Shown here: positions 9,060-45,844 of the stretch, in pieces
Layout: the number at the start of each line of letters is the position of its first letter
How positions within the stretch are numbered: the stretch's first letter is position 1
Source of the DNA: Anaerovibrio sp. JC8
GTDB taxonomy: Bacteria; Bacillota; Negativicutes; Selenomonadales; Selenomonadaceae
DNA: 64,000 nt
Direction of reading: 5' to 3'
NCBI RefSeq assembly: GCF_002100115.1
Contig: NZ_ANBM01000003.1
Coordinates: 1 to 64,000 of the forward strand
Position numbers and translations under genes: made by a program
Notes under the pieces: model-generated
The model's input: only the letters and a program-made list of their open reading frames with translations
Database searches by the model: none
Told to the model about the DNA's origin: nothing

Positions 9060-9269
9060 GGACAGGTGATAGCTGGCTATCGCAAGAACACGTCACTAAA
9101 AATATTTTTTGCAGAAAATAAAATAGCGATAAAAATTATAACTCGCTCCACCATTACAACACTGGTTCCGCGTCGCTCAAACAGATAATTTTTATCGCTA
9201 ATGCAGGAATGCAAAAAATATTCTCTTAACGTGACCTGTTCAACTGCGCTAGCCAACTGTCACCTGTCC
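9060..9269. mobile_element. MITE-like 210-bp nested inverted-repeat element
   Basis: The outer arms, 9060-9113 and 9210-9269, are imperfect reverse complements. Each begins GGACAGGTGA and ends TTTTTTGCA, with a few substitutions and about 6 bases of indels. Inside is a perfect 16-bp inverted repeat, TAGCGATAAAAATTAT (9124-9139) against 9185-9200. In the centre is a small ACCA/TGGT stem. There is no coding capacity. The right arm overlaps the last six codons and the stop of the gene starting at 10148. No clear target-site duplication was found. The architecture resembles a miniature inverted-repeat element; an alternative is a large structured intergenic RNA. No second copy was noticed in this window. 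Confidence 0.55.
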
Positions 9270-10148
9270 ATTTATCTGGCGTTCCTCAGTAAGTGCTGTC
9301 TGTACCTTCTTCAAAATATCCAGATGAACACTCATAGGCAGACGGTCAATGGTAGGCTCGTTCTTTCTGGTGCAGCCGTCCACACTGCCTGCTGCCACAA
9401 TGGCCTTGATGAGCTTCTTTTCCATTTCCTTGGTGGAAATAAGATTCTGGCCATGCTTCAGGCTCAAAAGGGCGCAGATTCCCCAGCCCCACCAGTTGGA
9501 AACCCCGGATACTATTGGTATCTGGGCACACTCGGAGGCACAGATTTCCGCCCCGTGGGGCACCTGTATTTCAATGGCATCCCGCAATGAGCCCATGCCG
9601 ATTTCGTTGCCGCCATCTCCTACGGATATGGTCATAACGCCCCGCTTTTGGGCTTCGTCAATAATACAGCTACAATCTGTCAGCATATCATCTATAATCT
9701 TGCCACCCATATTGTGGTAATGGCCATCACGGCCCTTCCCCGGCCGTTCCAACGTAATAAGATGAGTTGGCTTGAACTTGTCCAGCTGACGGATAATAAA
9801 GGCCTCTGTATCCTCATAAGGAATCAGTGTGGGAGCCGTTTTACAGCCAATGGTGTGCAGAGCCGCCTCAAAGGGACGGAACCCCTGGCTGTCGGTCATG
9901 GGCATAATTGTTATGCCCAGCTTCTCCAGAGCCAAAGCAATATTGGCAGTACCCAGTGGCCCATCGGTCTCCCCAATCCACTTGTTCTCCCCCAGGCGGG
10001 TTGGAAAACCAGTCAAAAGTATAACCCGTTCCATATTGTCCAGGCCCCGATCCAGGGCTGCCACCGGATTTGGCGGCATGTGGGGAATCAATCCCCTTTC
10101 CCCCGGGTCTTCCCGCATGATACTGTCCAGCTTCTCATAAAAAGTCAT
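9249..10148 (-). CDS. DUF4392 protein, D-glutamate cyclase catalytic half
   Basis: A 299-residue protein of the DUF4392 family, the C-terminal part of mammalian DGLUCY (D-glutamate cyclase, which converts D-glutamate to 5-oxo-D-proline). Visible family features include NPVAALDRGLDNMERVILLTGF near the start, ETDGPLGT, ITLERPGKGRDGHYHNMGG and SVGDGGNEIGMG. The ATG at 10148 is chosen because AAGGAG sits eight bases upstream; a GTG three codons earlier directly abuts that site. Last gene of the cluster after pxpABC and the DUF1445 gene. The final residues GQVTVG and the stop codon lie inside the inverted-repeat element, so the native C-terminus may have been replaced. Function is inferred from the DGLUCY relationship and context. 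Confidence 0.8.
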   Translation of the reverse strand: MTFYEKLDSIMREDPGERGLIPHMPPNPVAALDRGLDNMERVILLTGFPTRLGENKWIGETDGPLGTANIALALEKLGITIMPMTDSQGFRPFEAALHTIGCKTAPTLIPYEDTEAFIIRQLDKFKPTHLITLERPGKGRDGHYHNMGGKIIDDMLTDCSCIIDEAQKRGVMTISVGDGGNEIGMGSLRDAIEIQVPHGAEICASECAQIPIVSGVSNWWGWGICALLSLKHGQNLISTKEMEKKLIKAIVAAGSVDGCTRKNEPTIDRLPMSVHLDILKKVQTALTEERQINGQVTVG

Positions 10149-10187
10149 AACACTCACTCCTTACAACGGCCTTACGAACTTGCTATT

Positions 10188-10997
10188 TTATTTCGTCTTT
10201 TTGCTCTCCAAAAAATCGTTGATTTCACTGTTCAGCTTGTTGGTAATGAACATACAGCCCGGGGCATGGGTGATTACCAGCGGCAGCTTGGCGTGCTCAA
10301 TCACCGCCTGAGGGGTTACCCCACAGGCCCAGAATACAGGAATTTCCCCCGGCTTAAAGGTTACAGGGTCACCATAATCAGGCTTCAATACATCCTTTAT
10401 TCCCAGCTTTTCCGGATGGCCGATATTCACCGGAGCACCATGAACATTAGGGAACCGTCCGGTTATGGCATCGGCTATCATGGCATTTTGTGCCGTCATT
10501 GGCCGCATGCTTACCACCAGCTCACCCTCAAAGATTCCCGCCGGCTCACACATGGTAGTGGTCTTAAACATTGGCACATTGCAGCCCATGGAAATATGGC
10601 GGATGTCTATATGGGCCTCCATCAGTGCTTCCTCAAAGGAAAAGCTGCAGCCGATGAGGAACACCACAAAATCATCCTGCCAATATGGAGTGGCATCCGT
10701 TACTTCCTTGGTCAGCACACCATTTTCAAATATTCTGTATTTTGGAATATCCGTAAGAATATTGGCCCCTTCCCCCATGTCCTTGACAAATTTGCTGCCG
10801 TGAATTACCTCCAGCAGCGGGCATGGCTTTGGATTTTTACGGGCAAATTCCTCAAAATCCCTGGCATATTTCTCCGGCAAAATAACCAGATTTGCCTGGG
10901 CATAGCCATTGGCCATTCCCGAGGTCTGACCGGTTATCTCCCCGTTTCGTATCTTGATCCACAAATTCTCCGGCCGCATATCTGCATATTCTGACAC
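10188..10997 (-). CDS. DUF1445 (YcsI-like) putative hydro-lyase, DGLUCY N-terminal half
   Basis: A 269-residue member of the DUF1445/YcsI family, annotated as putative hydro-lyases and homologous to the N-terminal part of DGLUCY. Family-type stretches are ANLVILPEKYARDFEEFA, FLIGCSFSFEEAL, MRPMTAQNA, HGAPVNIGHPE and the C-terminal ITHAPGCMFITN. Translation appears to start at GTG with GGGAGG upstream. It lies 13 bases after pxpC and about 39 bases before the DUF4392 gene. Having the two DGLUCY halves side by side as separate genes strengthens the D-glutamate cyclase interpretation. Its own reaction is not established from sequence. Confidence 0.83.
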   Translation of the reverse strand: MSEYADMRPENLWIKIRNGEITGQTSGMANGYAQANLVILPEKYARDFEEFARKNPKPCPLLEVIHGSKFVKDMGEGANILTDIPKYRIFENGVLTKEVTDATPYWQDDFVVFLIGCSFSFEEALMEAHIDIRHISMGCNVPMFKTTTMCEPAGIFEGELVVSMRPMTAQNAMIADAITGRFPNVHGAPVNIGHPEKLGIKDVLKPDYGDPVTFKPGEIPVFWACGVTPQAVIEHAKLPLVITHAPGCMFITNKLNSEINDFLESKKTK

Positions 10998-11010
10998 AAT
11001 GACCGCCTCC

Positions 11011-12099
11011 CTACTTTATTTGCTCAACGGACACCCTAAAAAGCTGCCCGTCTATCTTCAAATTATAATTTCTGACTCCCGGCCGTCTGTCCGGCCATTC
11101 CTCAGCTGCTTCCTCATCCATAAGGGCAATCTGCTCCTGCAGGGCCTTTCGAAAGCTGATGTAAATATCCTGGGCTTCCTCCACAGATATCACCTTAAAG
11201 GTGATTTTACTGCCGGGTGAGCACTGGGCCAAAAGCGGCAAATCCGCCGAAATGACCGTGGCTATCTTTGGATAACCCCCGGTGGTCTGATGGTCAGCCA
11301 TCATAATTATGGGCTGGCCGTTTGGCGGCACCTGAATGGAGCCAAATACTATACCGTCAGTAATCATATCCTTCTGGGTGGCCCGATGAATAACCTCCCC
11401 CTCCAGACGATACCCCATGCGGTCTGATTCATTGGATATGGTATAAACCGCACCATCAAGGGCCTTTACCGCCTCAGGAGTGAAATAATCATCCTGGGGT
11501 CCCAGCACTATGCGTATTTCGTGGCTATCACCAGGATGATTTTCATGCCACAGGTGATGATGCTGCATAAATTCATGGTCCGTATGGCGTACATGGTATT
11601 GCCCCGAAAGAATGGACTTGGCCAATTCCGAGGGCTCCCCTGTATTCAGCACTTCCCCATTGTACAGCTTGCTGCCATCTGCGCCGCCTATTCCCAGCTT
11701 CAGATTGGTGGAATGGCTTCCCAGTACCAGCGGCACATCGATACCACCATCTATGGCTATATAGGCTCTGGTGCCCTCCTCCATGGAGGCTACCTTCAGA
11801 TGCTGCCCCTTGTGAAGTATCAAGGACTCGTAGGCATGGGCTGGCTGATTGTCCACCAAAACCTTTGGTTCACCGCCGGTTACGGCCACCAGCACATCCT
11901 CACTGGCCTCCAGCTCCGGCCCCAGATAAGTACATTCCAGCAACGCGGCGTCACCATCGTTGCCCACCAGGGCATTGGCTATGCTGGCGGAATATCTGTC
12001 CATATCCCCGGACACCTGCATACCGCTGGCCTGATAGCCCATTCGTCCATTGTCCTGTATTGTGGTCATAAGGCCACTGTTAATAACCTTAATGCTCAT
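11011..12099 (-). CDS. pxpC: 5-oxoprolinase subunit C (biotin-dependent carboxyltransferase family)
   Basis: A 362-residue protein of the PxpC/KipA/urea amidolyase-like family. It begins with the family pattern GLMTTIQDNGRMGYQASGM and contains LLECTYLGPELEA, AYIAIDGGIDVPLVLGSHSTNLKLGIGG and QPIIMMADHQTTGGYPKIA. With PxpA and PxpB it forms the ATP-dependent prokaryotic 5-oxoprolinase that opens 5-oxoproline to glutamate. It overlaps the end of pxpB by 11 bases, indicating translational coupling. Slightly longer than average at the C-terminus, otherwise ordinary. Confidence 0.92.
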   Translation of the reverse strand: MSIKVINSGLMTTIQDNGRMGYQASGMQVSGDMDRYSASIANALVGNDGDAALLECTYLGPELEASEDVLVAVTGGEPKVLVDNQPAHAYESLILHKGQHLKVASMEEGTRAYIAIDGGIDVPLVLGSHSTNLKLGIGGADGSKLYNGEVLNTGEPSELAKSILSGQYHVRHTDHEFMQHHHLWHENHPGDSHEIRIVLGPQDDYFTPEAVKALDGAVYTISNESDRMGYRLEGEVIHRATQKDMITDGIVFGSIQVPPNGQPIIMMADHQTTGGYPKIATVISADLPLLAQCSPGSKITFKVISVEEAQDIYISFRKALQEQIALMDEEAAEEWPDRRPGVRNYNLKIDGQLFRVSVEQIK

Positions 12100-12775
12100 T
12101 TTCCATCGCCCTAAATTCTTCTTGAGTAATCGGTTTAAATTTAATGTACTGCCCGGCCTTTAATAGCACCGGCTCCTGACGATTCACATCATAAAGCTTT
12201 AATGGGGTGCGGCCAATAATCTGCCAGCCCCCGGGTGATTCCACGGAGTATATGCCTGTCTGCTCCCCGGCTATGCCCACGCTGCCGGCCTCAATCTTTA
12301 GGCGGGGACTCTTTTTCCGCGGGGTGGCAATGGCCTTGTTCATGCCTCCCAGATAAGGAAAGCCCGCCACAAAGCCCAGCATATAAATGGGATATTCCGG
12401 CTCCGAATGAAGGCTGATAACCTCTTCCTCACTCATATTATGGGCGGCGGCCACCTCTCCCAGATCAGGGCCGTATTCTCCGCCATAGGCCACGGGAATT
12501 TCCACCACCTGTTTTGGCGGCATTTCCACCTTGTCCAGCTGACCCACCAGAGCATTGAGCTTGTCCTTCAGCTGCCCATAGCGAAGCTCCATGGGGTCAT
12601 ATTGAATCAGCAAAGAGCAGTAGGTGGGTACCATTTCCACAATCCCCGCAACCGGCTCCCGCTCCAGCACCATTTTCAGGGCCATAACCTTATGATTAAT
12701 TTCCAGACTGATTTCCTGCCCGAACTCCACAGATACGGCACAATCACCTACAGTAAGAATTCTCACATCATCCAT
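12089..12775 (-). CDS. pxpB: 5-oxoprolinase subunit B (KipI family)
   Basis: A 228-residue protein of the PxpB/KipI (allophanate hydrolase subunit 1-like) family. Recognisable stretches are GDCAVSVEFGQEIS, VEMVPTYCSLLIQYDP, IPVAYGGEYGPDL, YMLGFVAGFPYLGGM and PRLKIEAGSVGIAG. It partners PxpC in the 5-oxoprolinase complex. The start codon overlaps the pxpA stop (TAATG), so the two are translated together. Full length. Confidence 0.92.
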   Translation of the reverse strand: MDDVRILTVGDCAVSVEFGQEISLEINHKVMALKMVLEREPVAGIVEMVPTYCSLLIQYDPMELRYGQLKDKLNALVGQLDKVEMPPKQVVEIPVAYGGEYGPDLGEVAAAHNMSEEEVISLHSEPEYPIYMLGFVAGFPYLGGMNKAIATPRKKSPRLKIEAGSVGIAGEQTGIYSVESPGGWQIIGRTPLKLYDVNRQEPVLLKAGQYIKFKPITQEEFRAMENEH

Positions 12776-13533
12776 TATTTCAGGCTCCTAACCTCTATTC
12801 CTGCACCTTCCAGAGCTTTGCGAATGTTTTGTACCAGCTCAATGGCCTTTTCATTATCCCCATGAACACAGATGCTGTCTGCCTTTATGCTGATTTCTTT
12901 GCCATTTATGGAGATAACCTTGCCCTCTTTGGCCATTTTGACAGCCCGCTCCATGGCCTGCTGTGGGTCATGGATTACTGCCCCCGGCAGCTTGCGGCTC
13001 ACCAAGGAACCATCATCGTTATAGGCCCTGTCTGCAAAGACCTCACTGGCTACCTTTAGCCCCGCCTTTTCGGCCTCAGTGAGCATTACTGAGCCGGCCA
13101 GACCCATGAAAATAAGCTCCTTGTCTACGGAAGCTATTGCCTCACATATACCCTTGGCCAAGGCCTCATCCTTGGCCGCCATGTTGTACAGGGCACCATG
13201 GGGCTTTACGTGCTGAAGCTCCAGCCCCTGCCCCCTGGCAAAGGCCATCAGGGCTCCCAGCTGATATTTTACATAGGCTCCCGCTTCCTCAGGAGTCACC
13301 GTCATAGGACGGCGGCCAAAGCCCATAAGGTCCGGAAAGCCGGGATGGGCCCCCACAGCAACGCCATGCTCCTTGGCCAGTCTGACGGTCTTTTCCATAA
13401 TAAGCGGGTCCCCGGCATGCCAGCCACAGGCCACATTTACTGATGTCACATGGGGAATCACCGCTTCATCCATGCCCATGGTATAGGCACCGAAGCTTTC
13501 CCCTAAATCACAGTTCAAATCCACACAGCTCAT
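12775..13533 (-). CDS. pxpA: 5-oxoprolinase subunit A (LamB/YcsF family)
   Basis: A 252-residue LamB/YcsF family protein with [13 protein letters not shown] at the N-terminus, [36 protein letters not shown] and [17 protein letters not shown], the conserved active-site regions. Together with PxpB and PxpC it cleaves 5-oxoproline using ATP. GGGAGG lies six bases before the ATG. It is the first pxp gene and lies 108 bases after the D-amino acid transaminase gene; no strong terminator separates them, so co-transcription is possible. Confidence 0.94.
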
Positions 13534-13641
13534 ATTTTCCTCCCGGCAATGAGGACTTCATATACAACAATAGGGACCCCCATCTAAAGAACAAGACGTT
13601 GGCCCCTTATGTTTTTGAGCCTCATCGCTCACGTATTCAAA

Positions 13642-14502
13642 TTAATCATTCAAGGTGGTGCGGCCCGTATAAGCCAGATATTCCCTTACCAGCTCATCTG
13701 CCAGACGGTTTCTGGTCTCCGGGTCCTTGTTGCCTACAGGCTTACCGTCAATGGTGTCAGCATAAGTCAGCGGGTTGGAGGAAGAGGTTACCAGAACCTC
13801 ATCGGCATCCATAAGCTCCTCCAGAGTGAATGGCCGCTCCATTACCGGTATACCAAGGCGGTAGCAGGCCTGAATCATGTGGGTCTTGGCAATGCCCCGC
13901 AGAATATACTGGTCATTTGGATGGGAAATGAGATAGCCATTCTTCAAGATAGACACATTGCTGTGGGCACACTCAGTAACAATACCATTGCGGTGCAGTA
14001 CAGTTTCAGAAACACCCTCATCGGATGCCTGCTGGGAATATACCACCGCCGGCAGCAAATTCAGGGTCTTGATATAGCCATATTCAAAGCGCTCGTCTGC
14101 ATGGGTGCGAAGCTTCAAAGGCTTGTTAGGATCACCCATCTTTGACTTGCGGATATAAACCCACAGCTTGCCCACCATATCCTTGCTATATACATGGTCC
14201 CGAGGTGCCAGACCACGGGTAACCTGCCAATAAACAAAATGCGTATTGCCTTCAACCTGCTTGGTCAAATCCTGCAGCAGCTTCTTTAATTCGTCCTTTT
14301 CCATGGGGATTTTAATGTCAAGTGCATTGGCACTGGTGTAGAACCGGTCCAGATGGTCCTCTACCAGATAAGGAACATGATTGCCGGCTGGTGTGGCCTC
14401 GTATACACCATCACCAAAAAAATGGGATCGATCGTTAAACGGAACCATTACCTCTTCAGGCGAACCAATTTTTCCGTCATAATAAGCTAATTCTTTAAAC
14501 AT
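13642..14502 (-). CDS. dat: D-amino acid (D-alanine) aminotransferase
   Basis: A 286-residue fold-type IV PLP enzyme. The Lys that carries PLP is K145 in YIKTLNLLPAV, the position known for the Bacillus D-amino acid transaminase. FFGDGVYEATP and YILRGIAKTHMI are also typical, and SSSNPLTYADTIDGKPVG marks the C-terminal lobe. It interconverts D-alanine plus 2-oxoglutarate with pyruvate plus D-glutamate. The start at 14502 has GGGGTGA five bases upstream; the longer reading frame lacks a site. Just downstream are pxpABC and the D-glutamate cyclase pair, so D-glutamate made here could be cyclised and recycled, an inference from neighbourhood. Confidence 0.9.
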   Translation of the reverse strand: MFKELAYYDGKIGSPEEVMVPFNDRSHFFGDGVYEATPAGNHVPYLVEDHLDRFYTSANALDIKIPMEKDELKKLLQDLTKQVEGNTHFVYWQVTRGLAPRDHVYSKDMVGKLWVYIRKSKMGDPNKPLKLRTHADERFEYGYIKTLNLLPAVVYSQQASDEGVSETVLHRNGIVTECAHSNVSILKNGYLISHPNDQYILRGIAKTHMIQACYRLGIPVMERPFTLEELMDADEVLVTSSSNPLTYADTIDGKPVGNKDPETRNRLADELVREYLAYTGRTTLND

Positions 14503-14603: not shown

Positions 14604-14642
14604 TACAAAAATGGACAGGTCCTCCAAAGACGAACCTGTCCA
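14604..14642 (-). terminator. Terminator after pepD
   Basis: The stem TGGACAGGT (14612-14620) pairs perfectly with 14634-14642 and is followed on the minus strand by TTTTTG. It lies 15 bases past the pepD stop and closes the FIST kinase/protease/PepD unit. Confidence 0.85.
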
Positions 14643-14656
14643 AATATTCAATTACA

Positions 14657-16120
14657 TTATTCCGCCAAACGCTGAATTGTTTCGGCTATAAGTTTAACCT
14701 GTGGCACAATGGAGGCCAGCTCCAGCCGCTCCTGGGGACTATGAATGTCCATGGTGGTAACGCCAATGGACACCACATCCAAATCCGGCTTCTTCATCAG
14801 ATGGTAGCCACACTCGAGACCGGCATGGATGGTTTCCACTTTCATGGAGAAACCATTCTGCTGCTTAAAGACCTCCTGCATGACCTTGGCCAGCCTGCTG
14901 TTGGCATTTTCCTTCCAGCCCGGGGACTGGTTGCCGATAACTGCCGTAAAGCCGGCCATCTGCCCCATTATATCCGCCTGCAAAACGAACTCGCTGAGCT
15001 TGGCGTCAATGGAAGAACGTGGGAAATAGGCAATACTGATTACCTCTCCCTTATCATCCATCCTTACCATGCCCACATTGGCGGAGGTTTCCACCAGCCC
15101 CGGCACCACCTGGGACATGGCATATACACCGCTGTGAAGGGACACAAGGAGACGGATAATGCTGTCACGGTCCTCATCAGTCATCACCTGCTGCGGCAGC
15201 TCTGCCTCAGTAAGCTCAAGCTCAATATTTCCATCAATGTCACCAAACTTGGCAATGAAGCTGTCCCGCTCTGCCTCCAGAACCTCCTGAACGACCTCAG
15301 CCTCCGCCATGGTGGAGATAAGCACCTCCGCCTCGGCGGGAATGGAGTTGCGGGCCTTGCCACCGGTAAAGCTGGCCAGCTCGTAGGCGATGCCGGCCTC
15401 ATCCAAGGCATTGAGCACCATGGCCATAGTACGGATGGCATTGCCCCGTCCTTTGTCGATTTCCATGCCGGAATGGCCGCCCAGCAAGCCCTTTAAATGA
15501 ATCCTGTAGGCCTTGTCCCCCTGAGGGGCAGAAAAGGTCAGCTGACGGTTAAAATCAATATTGACACTGCCGGCGGCTCCCACCGTCAGCTCGTCATAAT
15601 TTTCCGAATCGCAGTTTATGAGATACTGGGCATCCATAAGATATTCAGGGTCAAGATGAATGGCCCCGGTCATGCCCTGCTCCTCATCCACGGTAATGAT
15701 AGCCCGCAGGGGACCATGTTCATCGAGGTGCTTCATTAAATAAAGGATTTCAGCTATGCCGATGCCATCATCAGCCCCCAGGCTGGTGCCATCCGCAGAC
15801 AGGAATTTTTCATCCCGTACCAGCTTAACAGGGTCCTTCAGAGGATCATAGGCCACACCGGGCGCTGCCACACAAACCATATCCATGTGGGCCTGCAATA
15901 TGATAACCGGTGCCTTCTCCTTCCCCGCCGTAGCCGGCAAATCGGCCACAACATTATTTACCTCATCCTGATGAACCCTGCAGCCAATATCAGTAAAGGC
16001 CTTTACCAGATAATCGCTGACCGCCTTTTCGTGGCCGGATTTACGGGGAATAGCTGCCAAATGGGCAAACTCCGCCAATACGCCATCAATTATTTCTGTG
16101 TCACTATAATTTATCATCAT
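14657..16120 (-). CDS. pepD: Aminoacyl-histidine dipeptidase, M20 family (PepD)
   Basis: A 487-residue dizinc M20C peptidase of usual length. Metal-site residues are visible: H78 and D80 in QAHMDMV, D117 in SLGADDGIGIA, the catalytic E146 and ligand E147 in DEEQGMTGA, and D172 in CDSENYDELTVG. The lid domain has GGHSGMEIDKGRGNA, and the last ligand is in HAGLECGY. Family members split Xaa-His and other dipeptides in the cytoplasm. It starts 18 bases after the secreted C11 protease gene, so extracellular proteolysis and intracellular peptide breakdown appear co-expressed. AGGA precedes the ATG. Confidence 0.93.
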   Translation of the reverse strand: MMINYSDTEIIDGVLAEFAHLAAIPRKSGHEKAVSDYLVKAFTDIGCRVHQDEVNNVVADLPATAGKEKAPVIILQAHMDMVCVAAPGVAYDPLKDPVKLVRDEKFLSADGTSLGADDGIGIAEILYLMKHLDEHGPLRAIITVDEEQGMTGAIHLDPEYLMDAQYLINCDSENYDELTVGAAGSVNIDFNRQLTFSAPQGDKAYRIHLKGLLGGHSGMEIDKGRGNAIRTMAMVLNALDEAGIAYELASFTGGKARNSIPAEAEVLISTMAEAEVVQEVLEAERDSFIAKFGDIDGNIELELTEAELPQQVMTDEDRDSIIRLLVSLHSGVYAMSQVVPGLVETSANVGMVRMDDKGEVISIAYFPRSSIDAKLSEFVLQADIMGQMAGFTAVIGNQSPGWKENANSRLAKVMQEVFKQQNGFSMKVETIHAGLECGYHLMKKPDLDVVSIGVTTMDIHSPQERLELASIVPQVKLIAETIQRLAE

Positions 16121-40538: not shown

Positions 40539-41288
40539 TTATTTCATTTTTTCCTTGAGCATATCCGCAGCCGCCAGCAATGCCATTATCATGGCAGATG
40601 GTCTAGGAGGACAGCCGGGAACATACAGATCCACCGGCACCACCTTGTCAGCAGCTCCCACTACAGCGTAGGTATCACCGTAGGTTTCACCGCCGGCAGC
40701 ACAGGCACCACAGGCCATTACCAGCTTTGGCTCAGGCAATGCTTCATAGGACATCTTCAGGGCCTGCTCCAGATTGCGGGTAACGACTCCCGTCACCATA
40801 AGCATATCGGCATGACGTGGTGAAGCCACAAAGTGTACACCATAACGGTGCAGATCATATATAGGATTGCTCATGGCACCCATTTCAAAATCACAGGCAT
40901 TGCAGGAGCCCGCATCAAGATGACGGACGTGCAGGGAACGGCCCAGCTTAACCTTAAGGACCTCCTGCAGAACCTCCTGCCCGGCTTCAACCAGCACCGG
41001 CAATGCGTCCTCATGCTTATGCTTCAAACCGGCCTCAGCGGCTTCATCAACAGCTGCCTTGGCACAGGCCTCCACACAGCGGCCGCAGAATAGGCATTTT
41101 TTATAATCAACCCTGTACTCCTCACCCTGTACAGAAAAAGCCTGAACAGGACAAGCAGCAGCGCAGGCCTTCAGCACCTCACCGCTGGCACTGCCCTCAA
41201 CAGGGCCACGAAATCTGTCACTGCCTGCCAGAGAGATCTGCTCAGTTGCCAGCTTGTCCTTAAAAATACGTTCTAAAACCTTAAACAT
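40539..41288 (-). CDS. Group 4 hydrogenase small subunit fused to ferredoxin domain (HyfH-HyfI-like)
   Basis: 249 residues. The C-terminal part (about 110-249) is a HyfI/HycG/NuoB-like subunit. Its proximal 4Fe-4S ligands are C129 and C132 (GSCNACDFE), C193 or C196 (MACGACAAGG) and C226 (VPGCPPRP). The N-terminal part resembles HyfH: one complete motif is C65, C68, C71, C75 (CLFCGRCVEAC). The other cluster keeps only ACAAACP (C42, C46), so two ligands are lost. HyfH and HyfI are separate in E. coli. It conducts electrons to or from the NiFe centre of the large subunit. Last gene of the hyf-like cluster. Confidence 0.85.
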   Translation of the reverse strand: MFKVLERIFKDKLATEQISLAGSDRFRGPVEGSASGEVLKACAAACPVQAFSVQGEEYRVDYKKCLFCGRCVEACAKAAVDEAAEAGLKHKHEDALPVLVEAGQEVLQEVLKVKLGRSLHVRHLDAGSCNACDFEMGAMSNPIYDLHRYGVHFVASPRHADMLMVTGVVTRNLEQALKMSYEALPEPKLVMACGACAAGGETYGDTYAVVGAADKVVPVDLYVPGCPPRPSAMIMALLAAADMLKEKMK

Positions 41289-41306
41289 CGCTTTTACTCA
41301 TCTCCC

Positions 41307-42809
41307 TTATCTATCAATGCAGGCATAACAAAGCTCAAAGCTCTTGTTAATCAATGGAAAGTCCGGAATAATGTCACCCTGCACCGCAATAGGAAGGGCT
41401 GGCCAGTTAGCATAGGAAGCACTGCGGACGAAAAGTCTGTCAATGCGGCCCTCACTGTCAAGGGCAACATACTGGAAGTTACTGCCCCGGGCAGACTCGC
41501 TGATACCCCAGGATGCACCCTCGGCATAAGCAACAGGCACGAACAGCTCCTGGCTGTCACAGTTATTCAGAAGCTCAATAAGCTTATCCACCATCTCAAA
41601 GGAAGCAGACAGCTCACCAATGCGAACCAGCAGACGGGCCGCCACATCACCCATGGTCTTGGTATATGGCTTGAAATCCAGCTCATCATAAACACCATAG
41701 GAGAAATCACTGCGGCTGTCGTGCTCATAGCCGCTGGCACGGGCACCAACACCCACCAGGGCCAGATCTACGGCAGTCTGGTTGCGGACAATACCCGTGG
41801 TCTGTACGCGGTTCTGGAAATTTTCCTGCTCCCGGAACATGGTAGCCATGTCCTCAACACCGTCAGCCACCTCATCCATAACATTATGGATACGCTCCCG
41901 CAGCTCCTGGGTAATATCCATGGAGACACCGCCCGTAATAATCATTCCCCTGAGGAAACGATTTCCCGCCACGGCCTCACTGAGTCGCATGAGCTTTTCC
42001 TTCAAACGGCCCCCAAGGCTGATAGCCGGATTAAAGCCCACACCGGCAGGAATATTGCCAATATCACCGGTATGGTTGGCAATACGCTCCAGCTCCATCA
42101 GCAGGGTACGGATGATTTCAGCCCGGCGGGGCACCTTGATATTCAAAGCCTTTTCCACTGCCTGACAGAAGCTCCAGGTGTTGGCAATGCTGCAGGCACC
42201 ACAAATGCGCTCCACAATTGGCAATGCCTCATAAGGAGTTTTGCCCTCCACTGCCTTTTCAATACCCCGATGGGTAAAGAACAGCTTGGCATCCAGCTGG
42301 AGCATGGCCTCACCGGCCTGGCTGAAACGGAAATGCCCCGGCTCAATAATGCCGGCATGAATCGGGCCCACCGGCACCTCAAAGAGGCCCTCGCCCTTGG
42401 CCGTACGAACCTTAAACTGACGCTCCCCTCGAACCTTGGCATTAACCTTCACGTCCTTACGGAGAGGATAAAAGCCCTCCGGAAAGCTCTCATGAAGCAC
42501 CAAAGGCCGCAAATCAGGATGTCCCTTTGGCACCAGACCAAACATATCCTTGATTTCCCGCTCATACCAGGCTGCAGCCGGCACAATATGGGTAATGCTG
42601 TCATATTCCAGTGAACCGTTTGGATTAAAGACAACCTTGAAGCCGTCCATGGTCTTGTCCTCTGGAATCTCAAAATAGCAATATATTACATAACCAACAC
42701 CGGAGGCGGTTTCATCCCGGCCAAACATGGCGGTAAGAGGATGCTTTCCCCCGGCGGAATATTTCTCCGCTGCCATCAGGATAGCTTCCGGCATAATTGT
42801 AGTCATCAT
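41307..42809 (-). CDS. hyfG: Group 4 [NiFe]-hydrogenase large subunit (HyfG-like, NuoC-NuoD fusion)
   Basis: 500 residues. Residues 1-115 are NuoC-like (AWYEREIKDMFGL, HPDLRPLVLHE). The remainder is NuoD-like (PVGPIHAGIIEPGHFRF, FTHRGIEKAVEGK, ELERIANHTGDIGNI). The N-terminal NiFe motif is RICGAC (C203, C206), instead of the common RVCGIC. The C-terminal motif is CYACIDR (C494, C497), ending at the last residue, with ELC where DPC is usual. All four cysteines are kept, so NiFe binding is plausible, but there is no cleavable C-terminal extension for an endopeptidase. Its start overlaps the HyfF-like stop (TAATG). GGAGGTG precedes it. Confidence 0.88.
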   Translation of the reverse strand: MMTTIMPEAILMAAEKYSAGGKHPLTAMFGRDETASGVGYVIYCYFEIPEDKTMDGFKVVFNPNGSLEYDSITHIVPAAAWYEREIKDMFGLVPKGHPDLRPLVLHESFPEGFYPLRKDVKVNAKVRGERQFKVRTAKGEGLFEVPVGPIHAGIIEPGHFRFSQAGEAMLQLDAKLFFTHRGIEKAVEGKTPYEALPIVERICGACSIANTWSFCQAVEKALNIKVPRRAEIIRTLLMELERIANHTGDIGNIPAGVGFNPAISLGGRLKEKLMRLSEAVAGNRFLRGMIITGGVSMDITQELRERIHNVMDEVADGVEDMATMFREQENFQNRVQTTGIVRNQTAVDLALVGVGARASGYEHDSRSDFSYGVYDELDFKPYTKTMGDVAARLLVRIGELSASFEMVDKLIELLNNCDSQELFVPVAYAEGASWGISESARGSNFQYVALDSEGRIDRLFVRSASYANWPALPIAVQGDIIPDFPLINKSFELCYACIDR

Positions 42810-44311
42810 TATGCAACACCTCCCAGCACAATCTTAGTGGCATTGGTCAATAAATGATTAAGCATGGTAATTTCCCCAAGCCCTGCACTGACAATAAAGC
42901 CAAAAACCAGCAGGCCAGCAATAACCACAGAATCCAATACGCCAAAGAACTCACCGGCTACCCTGCGCTTTGGCTTGCCCCCCAGCATACGCATTACGTG
43001 GTACAAAATACCGATAAGCATGCCGGCAAGAAGTATCATGGTCACTACACCCAGCCAAGGATGGTCAGAGCTAAAGAAGCCGTAGAGCATGAAGAACTTA
43101 CTGAAGAATATGCCAAACGGCGGCATCCCCAACAGGGCCACAATTCCCAGCAGCAGGAAGGTAGCTGTCCGTGGAACCTGCACCATCATACCGTGAATAC
43201 GCATCATATTCTTGGTGCCATATTCACCGATGACTGTACCAGCCATATAGAACAAGGAAAACTTCACCAGGGCATGGTTAAAGAGGTTCAGCAGCATTGC
43301 CTGGGCTGCCACTGGCACAAAGAGTCCAAAGGCCGCCATCATAAGGCCGAAATTCTCCATGGAGGAATAAGCCAGCATACGCTTAATATCCCGCTGCACC
43401 ACCACAAATGGCACTGCCACCAAAATGGTAAACAGACCGAAGAACAGGCACAGGCCGCTGATAAAATCAATGCCAATGGATGGCATAAGAATAATTATAT
43501 TTCTAATCAGAACATAAACAGCACAGCTGCACAAAGAGCCGGACAACAGACCGCTGGTCAGGGCCGGAGCCTCGGAGTAGGCATCAGGCAGCCAGGCATG
43601 CATCGGTGCCAGACCAATCTTGGTACCATAGCCTACAAACAGGAAGCACAGTGCAAACTTGGCCATGGCAGGATCCAAGGCCTTGCTGTGCTCAGCCAGA
43701 TACAGCCAGTTAAGGGCATTTTCACTGCCAAAGGTGTACAGCTGCATATAATAAACAATAATAGTACCCAAAAGAGCCAAACAGATACCCACGGTACAAA
43801 CCATAACGTACTTCCAGGTGGCTTCCAGAGAGGTACGGGTGAACTTGAAGGCCACCAGCAGGGCTGATACCAGGGTAGTTGCTTCAATGGTAACCCACAT
43901 AAGGCCCAGATTATTTACCAGCACCACCAGCAGCATAATCCAGACAAAGATATGGGACAAGGCATAAAAACGTCCCTCAAGATAGCCGAAGCGTCTGAGA
44001 TAACCATAACGCTTGTTGGTATCACGGTCCAGATAGGCCTTGCTGGTCCATGCAAAGGCAAAATAAAGGGAGCCGATTATAATAAGCATCCACATGCTGA
44101 GAGCATCCAAATAAATATACTGTCCCGCAAAAGGAATATCGGAGTCAAAGGTCATAAGGAGCATGACAATCGCTGCCCCAACTCCCGTGGCCACCAGACG
44201 GTTCAGCCAGTGGAGTACATTCCTGCCCAGAAAATTAACTGCAGCAACAGCGCTGAAAATCAATGGCAGGGCAAGTATTATATATATCAATTCTCTTATA
44301 TCAAAATTCAT
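42809..44311 (-). CDS. hyfF: Hydrogenase-4 membrane subunit F-like (proton-pumping antiporter-type)
   Basis: A 500-residue polytopic protein of the NuoL/M/N and Mrp antiporter family. It has GLMWVTIEATTLVSALLVAF, GLAPMHAWLPDAYSEAPA and the conserved lysine-containing helices (GYGTKIGLAPMHAW). Residues RDIKRMLAYSSMENFGLM are characteristic. It should couple hydrogenase electron transfer to ion movement. Three bases separate it from the hyfE-like gene; GAAGGGG precedes the ATG. Confidence 0.88.
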   Translation of the reverse strand: MNFDIRELIYIILALPLIFSAVAAVNFLGRNVLHWLNRLVATGVGAAIVMLLMTFDSDIPFAGQYIYLDALSMWMLIIIGSLYFAFAWTSKAYLDRDTNKRYGYLRRFGYLEGRFYALSHIFVWIMLLVVLVNNLGLMWVTIEATTLVSALLVAFKFTRTSLEATWKYVMVCTVGICLALLGTIIVYYMQLYTFGSENALNWLYLAEHSKALDPAMAKFALCFLFVGYGTKIGLAPMHAWLPDAYSEAPALTSGLLSGSLCSCAVYVLIRNIIILMPSIGIDFISGLCLFFGLFTILVAVPFVVVQRDIKRMLAYSSMENFGLMMAAFGLFVPVAAQAMLLNLFNHALVKFSLFYMAGTVIGEYGTKNMMRIHGMMVQVPRTATFLLLGIVALLGMPPFGIFFSKFFMLYGFFSSDHPWLGVVTMILLAGMLIGILYHVMRMLGGKPKRRVAGEFFGVLDSVVIAGLLVFGFIVSAGLGEITMLNHLLTNATKIVLGGVA

Positions 44312-44314
44312 AAA

Positions 44315-44944
44315 TTACCCCTTCAATTTTTTCATAACGCTGGTGTCTGTAGTCATAAAGGACAGACGCATTCTGGAGGTGAGAATAACCAATACCACCA
44401 CAGCAATTAAAACATCAAGGAAAACGCCCAGCTCCACTACCAGTGGCAGTCCCTCGGTCATGAGAAGGCCCAGGAGATAGATGCCATTTTCCAAGGTAAT
44501 AAGACCGCAAATCTGAATTATGGCACGCTTACGCAGAACCATCAGTGAAAGACCGGTCATAATCATCAAAATAGATGAGGCCACAATATCACGGCCGACA
44601 GCCCCGGGCATGAGACGCTCCACTAGGGCATAGCCCATTACCAAAAACAGGGCCGCCGCCATGGTGGAATAGTTTACATTACTTGCAGACACAATCTCCC
44701 GCTCGTTTTTCAGCTTCTTTACCAGACGATAGATTGCCCCCGGAATAAAGATAACCTTTACTATAAGGGTCAGCACCCCCGGCATAACCGCGTGAATATC
44801 ATTGCCATGGGAAAAGCCCAGCACAAAGCAGGCAATGGCAATGATTACTGACTGGCTGGCCAGACAGATAACGGCCCGTTTCAAATCCGTAACCCTTGTC
44901 TGCAGGAAAACCACAAGAACTAAGAATACAACCAAATAATCCAT
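44315..44944 (-). CDS. hyfE: Hydrogenase-4 membrane subunit E-like
   Basis: A 209-residue, about six-segment membrane protein with NuoK-like organisation. Hydrophobic segments begin MDYLVVFLVLVVFL and include VICLASQSVIIAIACFVLGF; acidic residues lie within ITLENGIYLLGLLMTEGL, as in HyfE. Expected to be part of the membrane arm between the B/F subunits and HyfC. GGGAGG lies upstream of the ATG. Confidence 0.85.
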   Translation of the reverse strand: MDYLVVFLVLVVFLQTRVTDLKRAVICLASQSVIIAIACFVLGFSHGNDIHAVMPGVLTLIVKVIFIPGAIYRLVKKLKNEREIVSASNVNYSTMAAALFLVMGYALVERLMPGAVGRDIVASSILMIMTGLSLMVLRKRAIIQICGLITLENGIYLLGLLMTEGLPLVVELGVFLDVLIAVVVLVILTSRMRLSFMTTDTSVMKKLKG

Positions 44945-44959
44945 ATTTCTGTGACCTCC

Positions 44960-45844
44960 CTACTCTGCAATAATAGCCAGCAACAGCAGAACTATTGCGG
45001 CGCCAAGATATACACGAACCTTAAAGAGGCGCATCTTGTTATTGAGGGTTTCCACAATACCTATAAGAATGGCACCCAAAAGAACCTTCAGGGCCAGAGG
45101 GATTTCCACCGGCACATAAAGAGCCCCAAATAAAGTCAAAAACACTACGATTTTAAGATAGCTGCCCAAATGAATCAGTGACAGCAGCTTGCCGGAATAC
45201 TCCAGAGTCATGCACTCATGGATCATGGTGAGCTCCAAATGGGTATCCGGGTTGTCCACCGGCAGACGGCTGTTTTCCGCCAGCATGGTCAAAAAGAAGG
45301 CCACACATGCCAATACAGTGGACACAGTAAAGAAAGCCTCGTTATAATCAATAACCATGGCTGACAAGGTGGTGGAATGGTAACGGATGGAGTTAATGAG
45401 AATAGCCAGCATTACCGCAGGCTCCACCAAAACGGAAATATAGATTTCGCGGGAACCACCCATGCCACCAAAGGAAGTGGCTGCATCCATGGAGGACAGG
45501 GTCATAAAGAAGCGGCCCAAGGCCAGAATATACACGAAAATAAAGGCATCACCCATGCTGAACTGGCCCTGCAAAAAGCCCGGCACCATGGTAGCTGCCA
45601 TAAAGCTGGTCATGAAATACACCACCGGGGCCACCACGAAGATTATTCCCGTATATGGTGTCAGAATAGTGGCCTTTTTCCACCACTTGGCAATATCAAA
45701 ATACTCCTGAAAAATGCTGGCACCCTGACGCTTCTGCAGGCGGGCCTTAACCTTGTTGATAATACCGGCCACCAAAGGAGCAATCAACAGCAGCACAAAT
45801 CCCTGTACCAAGCTGAGGCCGATACTTGTCATCATATATTCCAT
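44960..45844 (-). CDS. hyfC: Hydrogenase-4 membrane subunit C-like (NuoH homologue)
   Basis: 294 residues, about eight membrane segments. Family signatures are GIINKVKARLQKRQGASIFQ at the N-terminus and MTLSSMDAATSFGGMGGSRE; ENSRLPVDNPDTHLELTMIH is the conserved NuoH-like loop. The subunit joins the hydrogenase module to the proton channel. Its ATG at 45844 overlaps the stop of the hyfB-like gene by one base; the run GGGGGG serves as ribosome site. Confidence 0.9.
   Translation of the reverse strand: MEYMMTSIGLSLVQGFVLLLIAPLVAGIINKVKARLQKRQGASIFQEYFDIAKWWKKATILTPYTGIIFVVAPVVYFMTSFMAATMVPGFLQGQFSMGDAFIFVYILALGRFFMTLSSMDAATSFGGMGGSREIYISVLVEPAVMLAILINSIRYHSTTLSAMVIDYNEAFFTVSTVLACVAFFLTMLAENSRLPVDNPDTHLELTMIHECMTLEYSGKLLSLIHLGSYLKIVVFLTLFGALYVPVEIPLALKVLLGAILIGIVETLNNKMRLFKVRVYLGAAIVLLLLAIIAE

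What the first reader, a model, noticed from the sequence alone, without database searches (positions are those of the whole stretch)
9249..14502. Possible D-glutamate/5-oxoproline cycle with a split D-glutamate cyclase
dat, pxpABC, DUF1445 and DUF4392 lie in a row on one strand. Mammalian DGLUCY, which cyclises D-glutamate to 5-oxo-D-proline, is a fusion of the last two domains. The transaminase can make D-glutamate, the cyclase would convert it, and 5-oxoprolinase returns glutamate. That a bacterial split cyclase works with PxpABC, and on which stereoisomer, is inference.
Basis: partly seen in the sequence, partly recalled or inferred. Interest (0 to 1): 0.7.

Follow-up and report, generated by a model that had tools for sequence, protein, structure and literature searches.

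The report
Bacterial one-way D-glutamate recycling gene set
A rumen bacterium carries six neighbouring genes that probably turn the mirror-image cell-wall amino acid D-glutamate into ordinary L-glutamate by closing it into a ring and opening it again with ATP, and related genomes suggest that one of these proteins may not do the job its database name says.

Summary
In detail: dat, pxpA, pxpB, pxpC, DUF1445 and DUF4392 lie in a row on the minus strand (9249-14502) of an Anaerovibrio genome, all intact. The linkage is not chance. In 249 Bacillota genomes all 44 with DUF1445 have PxpA, and DUF4392 sits within 5 kb of DUF1445 in 9 of the 21 genomes that have both. DUF4392-DUF1445, DUF1445-DUF4392 and DUF4392-PxpB fusions exist elsewhere.

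The "split cyclase" reading is only partly supported. DUF1445 genomes have either an NRAMP-family gene of the 5-oxoproline-importer kind beside pxp (21) or DUF4392 (19), rarely both (2) or neither (2). In Pseudomonadota, the DUF1445 genomes without PxpA (9 of 54) all carry the unrelated OPLAH-type oxoprolinase family, five within about 6 kb. So DUF4392, with an intact two-metal site, is the better candidate for the cyclase that supplies 5-oxoproline, and DUF1445 seems to act on 5-oxoproline itself.

I propose Dat -> D-Glu; DUF4392 -> 5-oxo-D-Pro; DUF1445 inverts it; PxpABC + ATP -> L-Glu: an irreversible D-to-L route rather than a cycle. The inversion step is inference, and the reported mouse product speaks against it. 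No activity could be tested here.

The parts
13642..14502 (-). dat: class IV aminotransferase, D-amino-acid type
   Evidence: PF01063; best PDB matches are D-amino-acid aminotransferases (3daa, 3lqs, 1daa); RxH carboxylate-trap motif (PRDH), catalytic Lys and Glu present; TIGR01121 cut-off not reached. Motif meaning recalled.
12775..13533 (-). pxpA (LamB/YcsF), 5-oxoprolinase subunit
   Evidence: PF03746 364 bits; NCBIfam PxpA subfamily NF003814 over cut-off, PxpA equivalog models not; only match in the genome
12089..12775 (-). pxpB (KipI-like), 5-oxoprolinase subunit
   Evidence: PF02682; TIGR00370 PxpB over cut-off
11011..12099 (-). pxpC (KipA-like), 5-oxoprolinase subunit
   Evidence: PF02626; TIGR00724 over cut-off; PxpC equivalog cut-off not reached
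10188..10997 (-). DUF1445 / PF07286 'D-Glu_cyclase' / UPF0317; proposed 5-oxoproline-acting enzyme (racemase, inferred)
   Evidence: invariant C59, C117, C225, H186, H244, R165 in 36 sequences; model pLDDT 91, matches 2pif/3db9, then NrpR-like 3nek Z 9.6
9249..10148 (-). DUF4392 / PF14336 'GLUCM-like_C'; proposed metal-dependent D-glutamate cyclase
   Evidence: six metal-binding acidic residues of TON_0340 present as E60, D62, E134, D178, E182, D257; translation start ATG 10148 (GTG 10157 also possible)
14613..14641 (-). terminator-like inverted repeat (8-bp arms, long loop, then T run) between the upstream pepD-like gene and dat; suggests the dat-pxp cluster is its own unit
   Evidence: seen by eye; not listed by the scan, which allows loops of 3-8 only; not tested further

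Best explanation
The six genes form a route that moves glutamate one way from the D to the L form. (1) Dat passes amino groups between D-amino acids (D-Ala and others from cell-wall turnover) and 2-oxoglutarate, giving D-glutamate. (2) DUF4392, a two-metal enzyme, closes D-glutamate to 5-oxo-D-proline. (3) DUF1445 converts 5-oxo-D-proline into the enantiomer that the oxoprolinase accepts, most likely by racemisation through conserved cysteines. (4) PxpABC opens 5-oxo-L-proline with ATP to L-glutamate, which makes the whole route irreversible. In related genomes without DUF4392 the same DUF1445 + oxoprolinase pair is served by a 5-oxoproline importer instead. Shown here: gene content, motifs, linkage, fusions and the NRAMP-or-DUF4392 pattern. 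Inferred: every reaction in this organism, and step 3 above all.
For: Mouse DGLUCY (DUF1445 + DUF4392 in one chain) converts D-Glu to 5-oxo-D-Pro (PMC5339696; parts 1-2 of 4 and passages seen). Co-occurrence in 249 Bacillota: DUF1445 with PxpA 44 of 44; DUF4392 with DUF1445 21 of 29; DUF4392 with PxpA 23 of 29. Fusions: DUF4392-DUF1445 (L077, L078), DUF1445-DUF4392 (L124), DUF4392-PxpB (L128), DUF4392-MurD-like (L097, L119, L123, L129; N domain only in L130); MurD is the D-glutamate-adding ligase. Import or make: of 44 DUF1445 genomes 21 have only a pxp-linked NRAMP, 19 only DUF4392, 2 both, 2 neither. Own genome has no NRAMP. PxpT, an NRAMP-family homologue of YcsG, is needed for growth on 5-oxoproline in C. 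glutamicum (PMC13274462, passages). The 12 pxp-linked NRAMP proteins examined read IGPG at the aligned first-helix motif, where metal NRAMPs have DPGN (recalled). DUF1445 with either oxoprolinase: Pseudomonadota 45 of 54 with PxpA, the other 9 of 9 with PF02538 frames of OPLAH length, 5 of them within about 6 kb (Pfam of the full chain at L165 and L167). The one TRAP receptor tested beside such a pair is closest to 2pfy/2pfz; receptors DctP6/DctP7 were crystallised with 5-oxoproline (PMC13274462, passage), and that these PDB codes are theirs is recalled.
Against: No biochemistry. The mouse enzyme contains DUF1445 and its reported product is 5-oxo-D-Pro, which argues against racemisation at least there. 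YcsG is also reported to be a Mn2+ importer (PMC10448178, passages). The pxp-linked NRAMP genes are of two subgroups; all four second-subgroup proteins examined (L150, L151, L153, L164) pass NCBIfam's cut-off for 'Nramp family divalent metal transporter', while the five first-subgroup ones scanned do not, so some may bring metal rather than 5-oxoproline. Pfam and NCBIfam call DUF1445 a D-Glu cyclase / hydro-lyase. The p-values ignore kinship, and only the own family (f1) shows the swap within itself; the other mixed family (f21) has NRAMP alone or both. 9 of 54 Pseudomonadota with DUF1445 lack PxpA. 6 of 29 DUF4392 Bacillota genomes lack PxpA; four of these, one genus, carry copies that lost a metal ligand. 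In L128 the class IV aminotransferase lacks the RxH motif. TON_0340 was reported as a weak Mn phosphatase (PMC5132392).
Confidence: 0.42

Rival explanations
1. Split D-glutamate cyclase (first reader, Pfam names): DUF1445 and DUF4392 together form the cyclase as in mouse DGLUCY, and PxpABC, perhaps tolerant of the D form, returns glutamate.
For: Mouse fusion protein makes 5-oxo-D-Pro. The two genes lie in one locus in 27 of 80 DUF4392 loci (a lower bound, some contigs are short) and are fused in three. Within PxpA genomes DUF1445 and DUF4392 co-occur (21 vs 2, against 23 vs 30).
Against: 23 of 44 DUF1445 genomes lack DUF4392, and 8 of 29 DUF4392 genomes lack DUF1445. DUF1445 sits with importer-type genes and with OPLAH-type genes. 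DUF4392 has its own complete metal site.
Confidence: 0.25
2. Overflow valve: Dat (and MurI) make D-glutamate for the cell wall, DUF4392/DUF1445 drain the excess as 5-oxoproline, and PxpABC mainly repairs spontaneously formed 5-oxo-L-proline; shared location reflects shared regulation.
For: Dat can supply D-Glu (family knowledge). The murI of this genome has a frame break. 24 of 76 PxpA genomes have none of DUF1445, DUF4392 or a linked NRAMP.
Against: murI is intact in same-genus relatives (9 of 12 others cover at least 222 of 251 positions, 1 is partial, 2 have none), so Dat is not the usual source. The DUF4392-PxpB fusion and the 44 of 44 dependence of DUF1445 on PxpA in Bacillota suggest a joint pathway.
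Confidence: 0.15
3. DUF4392 is a Mn-dependent phosphatase as reported for TON_0340, unrelated to glutamate; the neighbourhood is coincidental.
For: Low phosphatase activity on many phosphate compounds (PMC5132392).
Against: Activity was low and towards many compounds. The mouse homologue is a D-Glu cyclase. Repeated linkage and fusions with DUF1445, PxpB and MurD-like domains.
Confidence: 0.05

Closest known systems
Mammalian DGLUCY (9030617O03Rik / C14orf159), D-glutamate cyclase, EC 4.2.1.48
   Same: both domains, DUF1445 and DUF4392
   Different: here two separate genes, order DUF1445 then DUF4392, next to pxpABC and dat; bacterial product and stereochemistry unknown
Bacterial PxpABC 5-oxoprolinase operons (B. 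subtilis pxpA-ycsG-ycsI-kipI-kipA, order partly recalled; C. glutamicum pxpTABC)
   Same: pxpA, pxpB, pxpC; B. subtilis also has a DUF1445 gene (control; that it is YcsI is recalled)
   Different: no NRAMP gene here; DUF4392 and dat instead
TON_0340 of Thermococcus onnurineus (PDB 4fc5, 5gl4)
   Same: DUF4392 by sequence, six metal-binding acidic residues
   Different: reported as phosphatase; no DUF1445 in archaea according to that paper
D-amino-acid aminotransferase of the 1daa/3daa kind
   Same: RxH motif, catalytic residues
   Different: below the NCBIfam equivalog cut-off; sits in a pxp cluster
UPF0317 proteins PSPTO_5379 (2pif) and Atu3911 (3db9)
   Same: DUF1445 sequence and fold
   Different: structural-genomics entries; I found no assigned activity for them

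Membership tests
PxpABC 5-oxoprolinase | pxpA, pxpB, pxpC encoded together | tested here: met
PxpABC 5-oxoprolinase | NCBIfam cut-offs for each subunit | tested here: inconclusive
   PxpB equivalog and PxpA subfamily reached; PxpA equivalogs not reached; PxpC equivalog not reached (254.5 of 500), broader TIGR00724 reached
PxpABC 5-oxoprolinase | ATP-dependent opening of 5-oxo-L-proline | not testable with these tools
   -
D-glutamate cyclase (DGLUCY-like) | both domains PF07286 and PF14336 present | tested here: met
D-glutamate cyclase (DGLUCY-like) | both domains in one chain | tested here: not met
   two genes in the window; one chain in L077, L078, L124
D-glutamate cyclase (DGLUCY-like) | intact metal site of the DUF4392 domain | tested here: met
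D-glutamate cyclase (DGLUCY-like) | D-Glu to 5-oxo-D-Pro activity | not testable with these tools
D-amino-acid aminotransferase (EC 2.6.1.21) | RxH motif, catalytic Lys, cofactor Glu | tested here: met
   (meaning of the motif recalled)
D-amino-acid aminotransferase (EC 2.6.1.21) | TIGR01121 equivalog cut-off | tested here: not met
   204.5 of 277.45 bits; best-scoring family all the same
Import-type 5-oxoproline operon | NRAMP-type 5-oxoproline importer in or near the operon | tested here: not met
   no PF01566 match anywhere in the genome; other importer types not searched
Cys-based amino acid racemase (proposed for DUF1445) | two invariant cysteines | tested here: met
   C59, C117, C225 invariant in 36 sequences; whether any two face each other was not examined
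Cys-based amino acid racemase (proposed for DUF1445) | racemase fold | tested here: inconclusive
   no racemase among the listed matches; NrpR-like 3nek Z 9.6

The most novel reading that the evidence does not exclude
DUF1445 is not a glutamate cyclase but a 5-oxoproline racemase, an activity for which no paper was found here. DUF4392 alone is the D-glutamate cyclase. Bacteria combine them with PxpABC or OPLAH into an ATP-driven, irreversible D-to-L glutamate converter, fed either by a 5-oxoproline importer or by DUF4392 (plus Dat in Anaerovibrio). The Pfam and NCBIfam names of PF07286 would then be wrong.
Probability: 0.33. Interest if true: 0.82.

Novelty: new variant of a known kind. Interest (0 to 1): 0.66.

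Why it matters
How bacteria use D-glutamate from cell walls without a reversible racemase, and what the widespread DUF1445 and DUF4392 families do, are open questions. The import-or-make pattern assigns the two domains different jobs and makes both testable with two purified proteins and chiral HPLC. It also bears on mammalian DGLUCY, whose two domains are not tested separately in the text I saw.

Tried and rejected
Considered and rejected: (a) chance neighbours, because. (b) The upstream pepD-like gene (14657-16120) as part of the unit: it is also next to dat in L065 and L066, but lies 154 bp away with a terminator-like repeat between, and was not found in the other clusters. (c) Dat as the sole D-Glu source because murI looks broken: murI is intact in most relatives. 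(d) L128 as a third case of a canonical D-amino-acid aminotransferase in the cluster: it lacks the RxH motif. (e) DUF1445 never occurring without PxpA: true in 44 of 44 Bacillota, false in 9 of 54 Pseudomonadota and in 2 of the 15 genomes whose locus holds DUF1445 (L119, L129). (f) A racemase fold for DUF1445: none among the listed matches, which does not exclude one. (g) The promoter/terminator scan gave counts no higher than shuffled sequence.

Led nowhere or limited: a structure of a DUF1445-DUF4392 complex cannot be predicted with these tools; vertebrate DUF1445 residues were not checked; the 2017 JBC paper that described PxpABC is not held and is recalled only; which of the two NRAMP subgroups holds YcsG and PxpT was not tested; the base rate of the OPLAH-type family in Pseudomonadota was not measured, and PF02538 is a broad family.

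Rows dropped or choices made: the 20 clusters without local DUF4392 were picked by me, 20 of the 44 DUF1445 genomes, and L139 was left out as a copy of L035; result NRAMP in 0 of 19 clusters with DUF4392 and 12 of 20 without (8 of those 20 genomes have DUF4392 elsewhere). The tree used 106 of 113 DUF4392 rows (pieces under 180 residues and L103, L122, L139, copies of L034, L040, L035, left out). L093 was not held and so not searched. The 80 loci are the best matches to a Bacillota-based alignment (of 551 found), not a random sample.
Full report
What is there. The window lies in an Anaerovibrio genome: the closest DUF4392 relative listed is from A. lipolyticus DSM 3074, 87% identical (very near records may be left out of that list). 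On the minus strand, in transcription order, are dat (14502-13642), pxpA (13533-12775), pxpB (12775-12089), pxpC (12099-11011), DUF1445 (10997-10188) and DUF4392 (10148-9249). Pfam identifies every one clearly. NCBIfam gives PxpB over its equivalog cut-off, PxpA over subfamily cut-offs only, PxpC and D-amino-acid transaminase below theirs, and DUF1445 as 'putative hydro-lyase' over its cut-off. DUF4392, DUF1445 and PxpA each have one match in this genome.

Residues. DUF4392 aligns to TON_0340 (PDB 5gkx, 4dwz, 4fc5; E about 1e-33). The six acidic residues that bind metal there (E59, D61, E115, D157, E161, D246; PMC5132392, parts 1-2 of 4 seen) are E60, D62, E134, D178, E182 and D257 here. Of 97 DUF4392 sequences with letters at all six sites, 91 keep all six. 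The exceptions are one with N at the last site and five, all from one genus, with A or S there; those five lie near gene families whose representatives are TRAP (DctM) and NMT1_3 transport proteins, in genomes without PxpA. DUF1445 has invariant C59, C117, C225, H186, H244 and R165 in 36 sequences. Its AlphaFold model (pLDDT 91) matches 2pif and 3db9 and then, much more weakly, the NrpR-like domain 3nek (Z 9.6, rmsd 3.9, 167 residues). Dat has the RxH motif, as do the Dat genes in the other Selenomonadaceae clusters and in L035/L139; the aminotransferase of L128 does not.

Linkage. In 249 Bacillota genomes DUF4392 is in 29 (28 over the cut-off), DUF1445 in 44 and PxpA in 76. All 44 DUF1445 genomes have PxpA (p 1.5e-28); 21 of 29 DUF4392 genomes have DUF1445 (p 2.2e-12); 23 of 29 have PxpA (p 9.9e-9) (kinship not corrected). 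On the contigs, DUF1445 lies within 10 kb of PxpA in 37 of 44, DUF4392 within 5 kb of DUF1445 in 9 of 21, and DUF4392 within 10 kb of PxpA in 4 of 23. Among 80 DUF4392 loci from named genomes, 27 hold DUF1445, 17 a pxp gene and 6 a Dat-like gene; all 6 of those also hold DUF1445 and pxp genes (lower bounds, as some contigs are short, and three loci repeat genomes of the Bacillota set). Fusions found by Pfam: DUF4392-DUF1445 in L077 and L078; DUF1445-DUF4392, the mammalian order, in L124; DUF4392-PxpB in a Spirochaetales genome, L128, followed there by PxpA, PxpC, a class IV aminotransferase and an alanine racemase; and DUF4392 with MurD-like domains in L097, L119, L123 and L129 (N and middle domain; the N match of L129 is just under its cut-off) and L130 (N domain only), none with a Pfam ligase C domain. 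The fused ligase part of L119 is closest to D-glutamate-adding MurD ligases in the PDB. In a tree of 106 DUF4392 sequences the pxp-linked label needs 13 changes, at least 10 forced by well-supported branches, so the linkage was made or lost many times; the window's copy groups with the Selenomonadaceae clusters, next to Lachnospiraceae copies.

Import or make. DUF1445-pxp clusters in genomes without DUF4392 nearly always carry an NRAMP-family gene (21 of 23; fetched examples). PxpT, an NRAMP-family homologue of B. subtilis YcsG, is required for growth of C. glutamicum on 5-oxoproline (PMC13274462, passages); YcsG has also been reported as a Mn importer (PMC10448178, passages). The linked genes are of two subgroups: of 12 examined, 8 are close to each other and 4 (L150, L151, L153, L164) are divergent. 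Those 4 pass NCBIfam's cut-off for a divalent metal transporter; the 5 of the first subgroup that I scanned do not. All 12 read IGPG at the aligned first-helix motif, where metal-transporting NRAMPs have DPGN (recalled). Which subgroup YcsG and PxpT belong to was not tested. Over all 44 DUF1445 genomes, 21 have a pxp-linked NRAMP and no DUF4392, 19 have DUF4392 and no linked NRAMP, 2 have both and 2 neither (Fisher p 4.5e-8). By family: 9 only NRAMP, 9 only DUF4392, 2 neither, and 2 mixed. Of the mixed ones only the own family shows a swap; the other (f21) has NRAMP alone or both. In the own family two relatives (G158, G228) have PxpA, PxpB, PxpC, DUF1445 and an NRAMP, with a biotin carrier and a biotin carboxylase in between (Pfam on G228), where Anaerovibrio has dat and DUF4392 and no NRAMP anywhere; the other four family members in the sample have none of DUF4392, DUF1445 and PxpA. 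Of the 32 PxpA genomes without DUF1445, 24 have neither partner, 6 a linked NRAMP and 2 DUF4392. My reading is that DUF4392 replaces the importer as the source of 5-oxoproline, and that DUF1445 is needed downstream in both cases.

DUF1445 and the second oxoprolinase. In 299 genomes of the phylum of a Rhizobiaceae locus (G297 = L126, Pseudomonadota), DUF1445 is in 54, of which 45 have PxpA (p 2.8e-12) and 9 do not. All 9 have PF02538 in a single open frame of 1202-1248 codons, the size of the one-chain oxoprolinase OPLAH (the size of OPLAH is recalled). In five (G318, G325, G470, G510, G549) it lies 2.6 to 6.1 kb from DUF1445; in a sixth, G597, a shorter PF02538 frame lies 5 kb away. Pfam confirms the full hydantoinase A + B chain in L165 and L167, and a TRAP transporter gene (DctM) in L165, L166, L167 and L170, with its receptor DctP in L165 and L166 (the other five loci were not scanned). 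The receptor of L165, the only one tested, is closest to 2pfy and 2pfz (E 8e-99 and 2.5e-92). PMC13274462 describes the Bordetella receptors DctP6 and DctP7 as crystallised with 5-oxoproline and lying near a eukaryotic-type oxoprolinase gene; that 2pfy and 2pfz are these entries is recalled. Across 39 DUF4392 genomes from many phyla, 29 have PxpA, and 9 of the 10 others have PF02538, the tenth being a 0.5 Mb record; PF02538 is a broad family. Of the 15 among them whose locus holds DUF1445, two, both Planctomycetota with the MurD-like fusion, lack PxpA.

Mechanism. The mammalian fusion makes 5-oxo-D-proline from D-glutamate (PMC5339696, parts 1-2 of 4 and passages). PxpABC and OPLAH are known on the L form (general knowledge; PMC13274462 for PxpABC). 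If ring opening keeps the configuration, Dat-cyclase-PxpABC would only burn ATP. A net gain needs an inversion. DUF1445, which travels with both kinds of oxoprolinase and with importer-type genes, is the natural candidate, and its invariant cysteines would suit a two-base racemase. C. glutamicum, which grows on 5-oxo-L-proline, has PxpA but no DUF1445 match (controls), so DUF1445 is not needed for the L form. Against this stands the mouse product. I give the whole route 0.42, DUF4392 as cyclase somewhat more, and DUF1445 as racemase 0.33.

What is in print. Searches in the open-access library: 'D-glutamate cyclase' 26 papers (20 listed); DUF1445 or 5-oxoprolinase 375 papers (30 listed); pxpA/B/C with DUF names 15; D-enantiomer terms 76 (30 listed); UPF0317 and related names 11; racemase and 5-oxo-D-prolinase terms, 0 papers; 'D-glutamate cyclase' with '5-oxoprolinase' and 'bacteri', one work in two versions; DUF4392 names 3. 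That work (PMC11580864 / PMC12547972; passages of the former seen) already lists human GLUCM with 6 split and no full-length gut-bacterial homologues, so the split itself is known; the passages I saw do not connect it to pxp. The TON_0340 paper noted in 2016 that DUF4392 and DUF1445 are fused in vertebrates and may act in sequence. I found no description of the bacterial route or of the import-or-make pattern in the listings and passages I saw; most subscription papers are not in the library.

Limits. No assay was possible. Fisher tests ignore kinship. The named-genome loci are the best matches, not a random sample. PxpC and Dat miss their strict family cut-offs. The murI frame break in this genome (T run in L031) is not seen in the 9 of 12 same-genus relatives with a near full-length match and may be a sequencing error.

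Noticed in passing
L031 (G000:C7:95983-96567): The glutamate racemase gene murI of this genome has its reading frame broken at a run of T; 9 of 12 same-genus relatives have a near full-length match without a break. Real mutation or sequencing error is not settled.
   Followed up: partly
L097, L119, L123, L129, L130: DUF4392 fused to MurD-like N-terminal and (except L130) middle domains without a Pfam ligase C domain, in Planctomycetota and a Desulfarculaceae genome; L119 and L129 lie next to DUF1445.
   Followed up: partly
L128:5759-11682: Spirochaetales cluster with a DUF4392-PxpB fusion, a class IV aminotransferase without the RxH motif, and an alanine racemase at the end.
   Followed up: partly
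L146:8382-10199 and the same region of L145: A biotin carrier protein and a biotin carboxylase inside the pxp-DUF1445 cluster of Selenomonadaceae relatives (Pfam run on L146).
   Followed up: no
L046, L052, L054, L055: DUF4392 copies in one genus that lost the metal ligand D257 and sit among TRAP/NMT1-type transporter genes in genomes without PxpA: likely a different substrate.
   Followed up: no
L043, L044, L053, L059, L100, L104, L124: A gene family whose representative (L043:5531-7324) is a gamma-glutamyltranspeptidase lies within 6 kb of DUF4392 in 7 loci.
   Followed up: no
L046, L058, L061, L126, L134, L135, L138: A gene family whose representative (L134:9666-10586) is an arylmalonate decarboxylase / Asp-Glu racemase relative lies within 6 kb of DUF4392 in 7 loci.
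   Followed up: no
L145-L154, L160, L164 (12 NRAMP-family genes in pxp clusters): All 12 lack the DPGN motif of metal NRAMPs at the aligned place and fall into two subgroups; what each carries is unknown.
   Followed up: partly
window 40539-47832, minus strand: A run of genes that reads like a membrane-bound hydrogenase or formate hydrogenlyase-type complex (judged from translations only).
   Followed up: no
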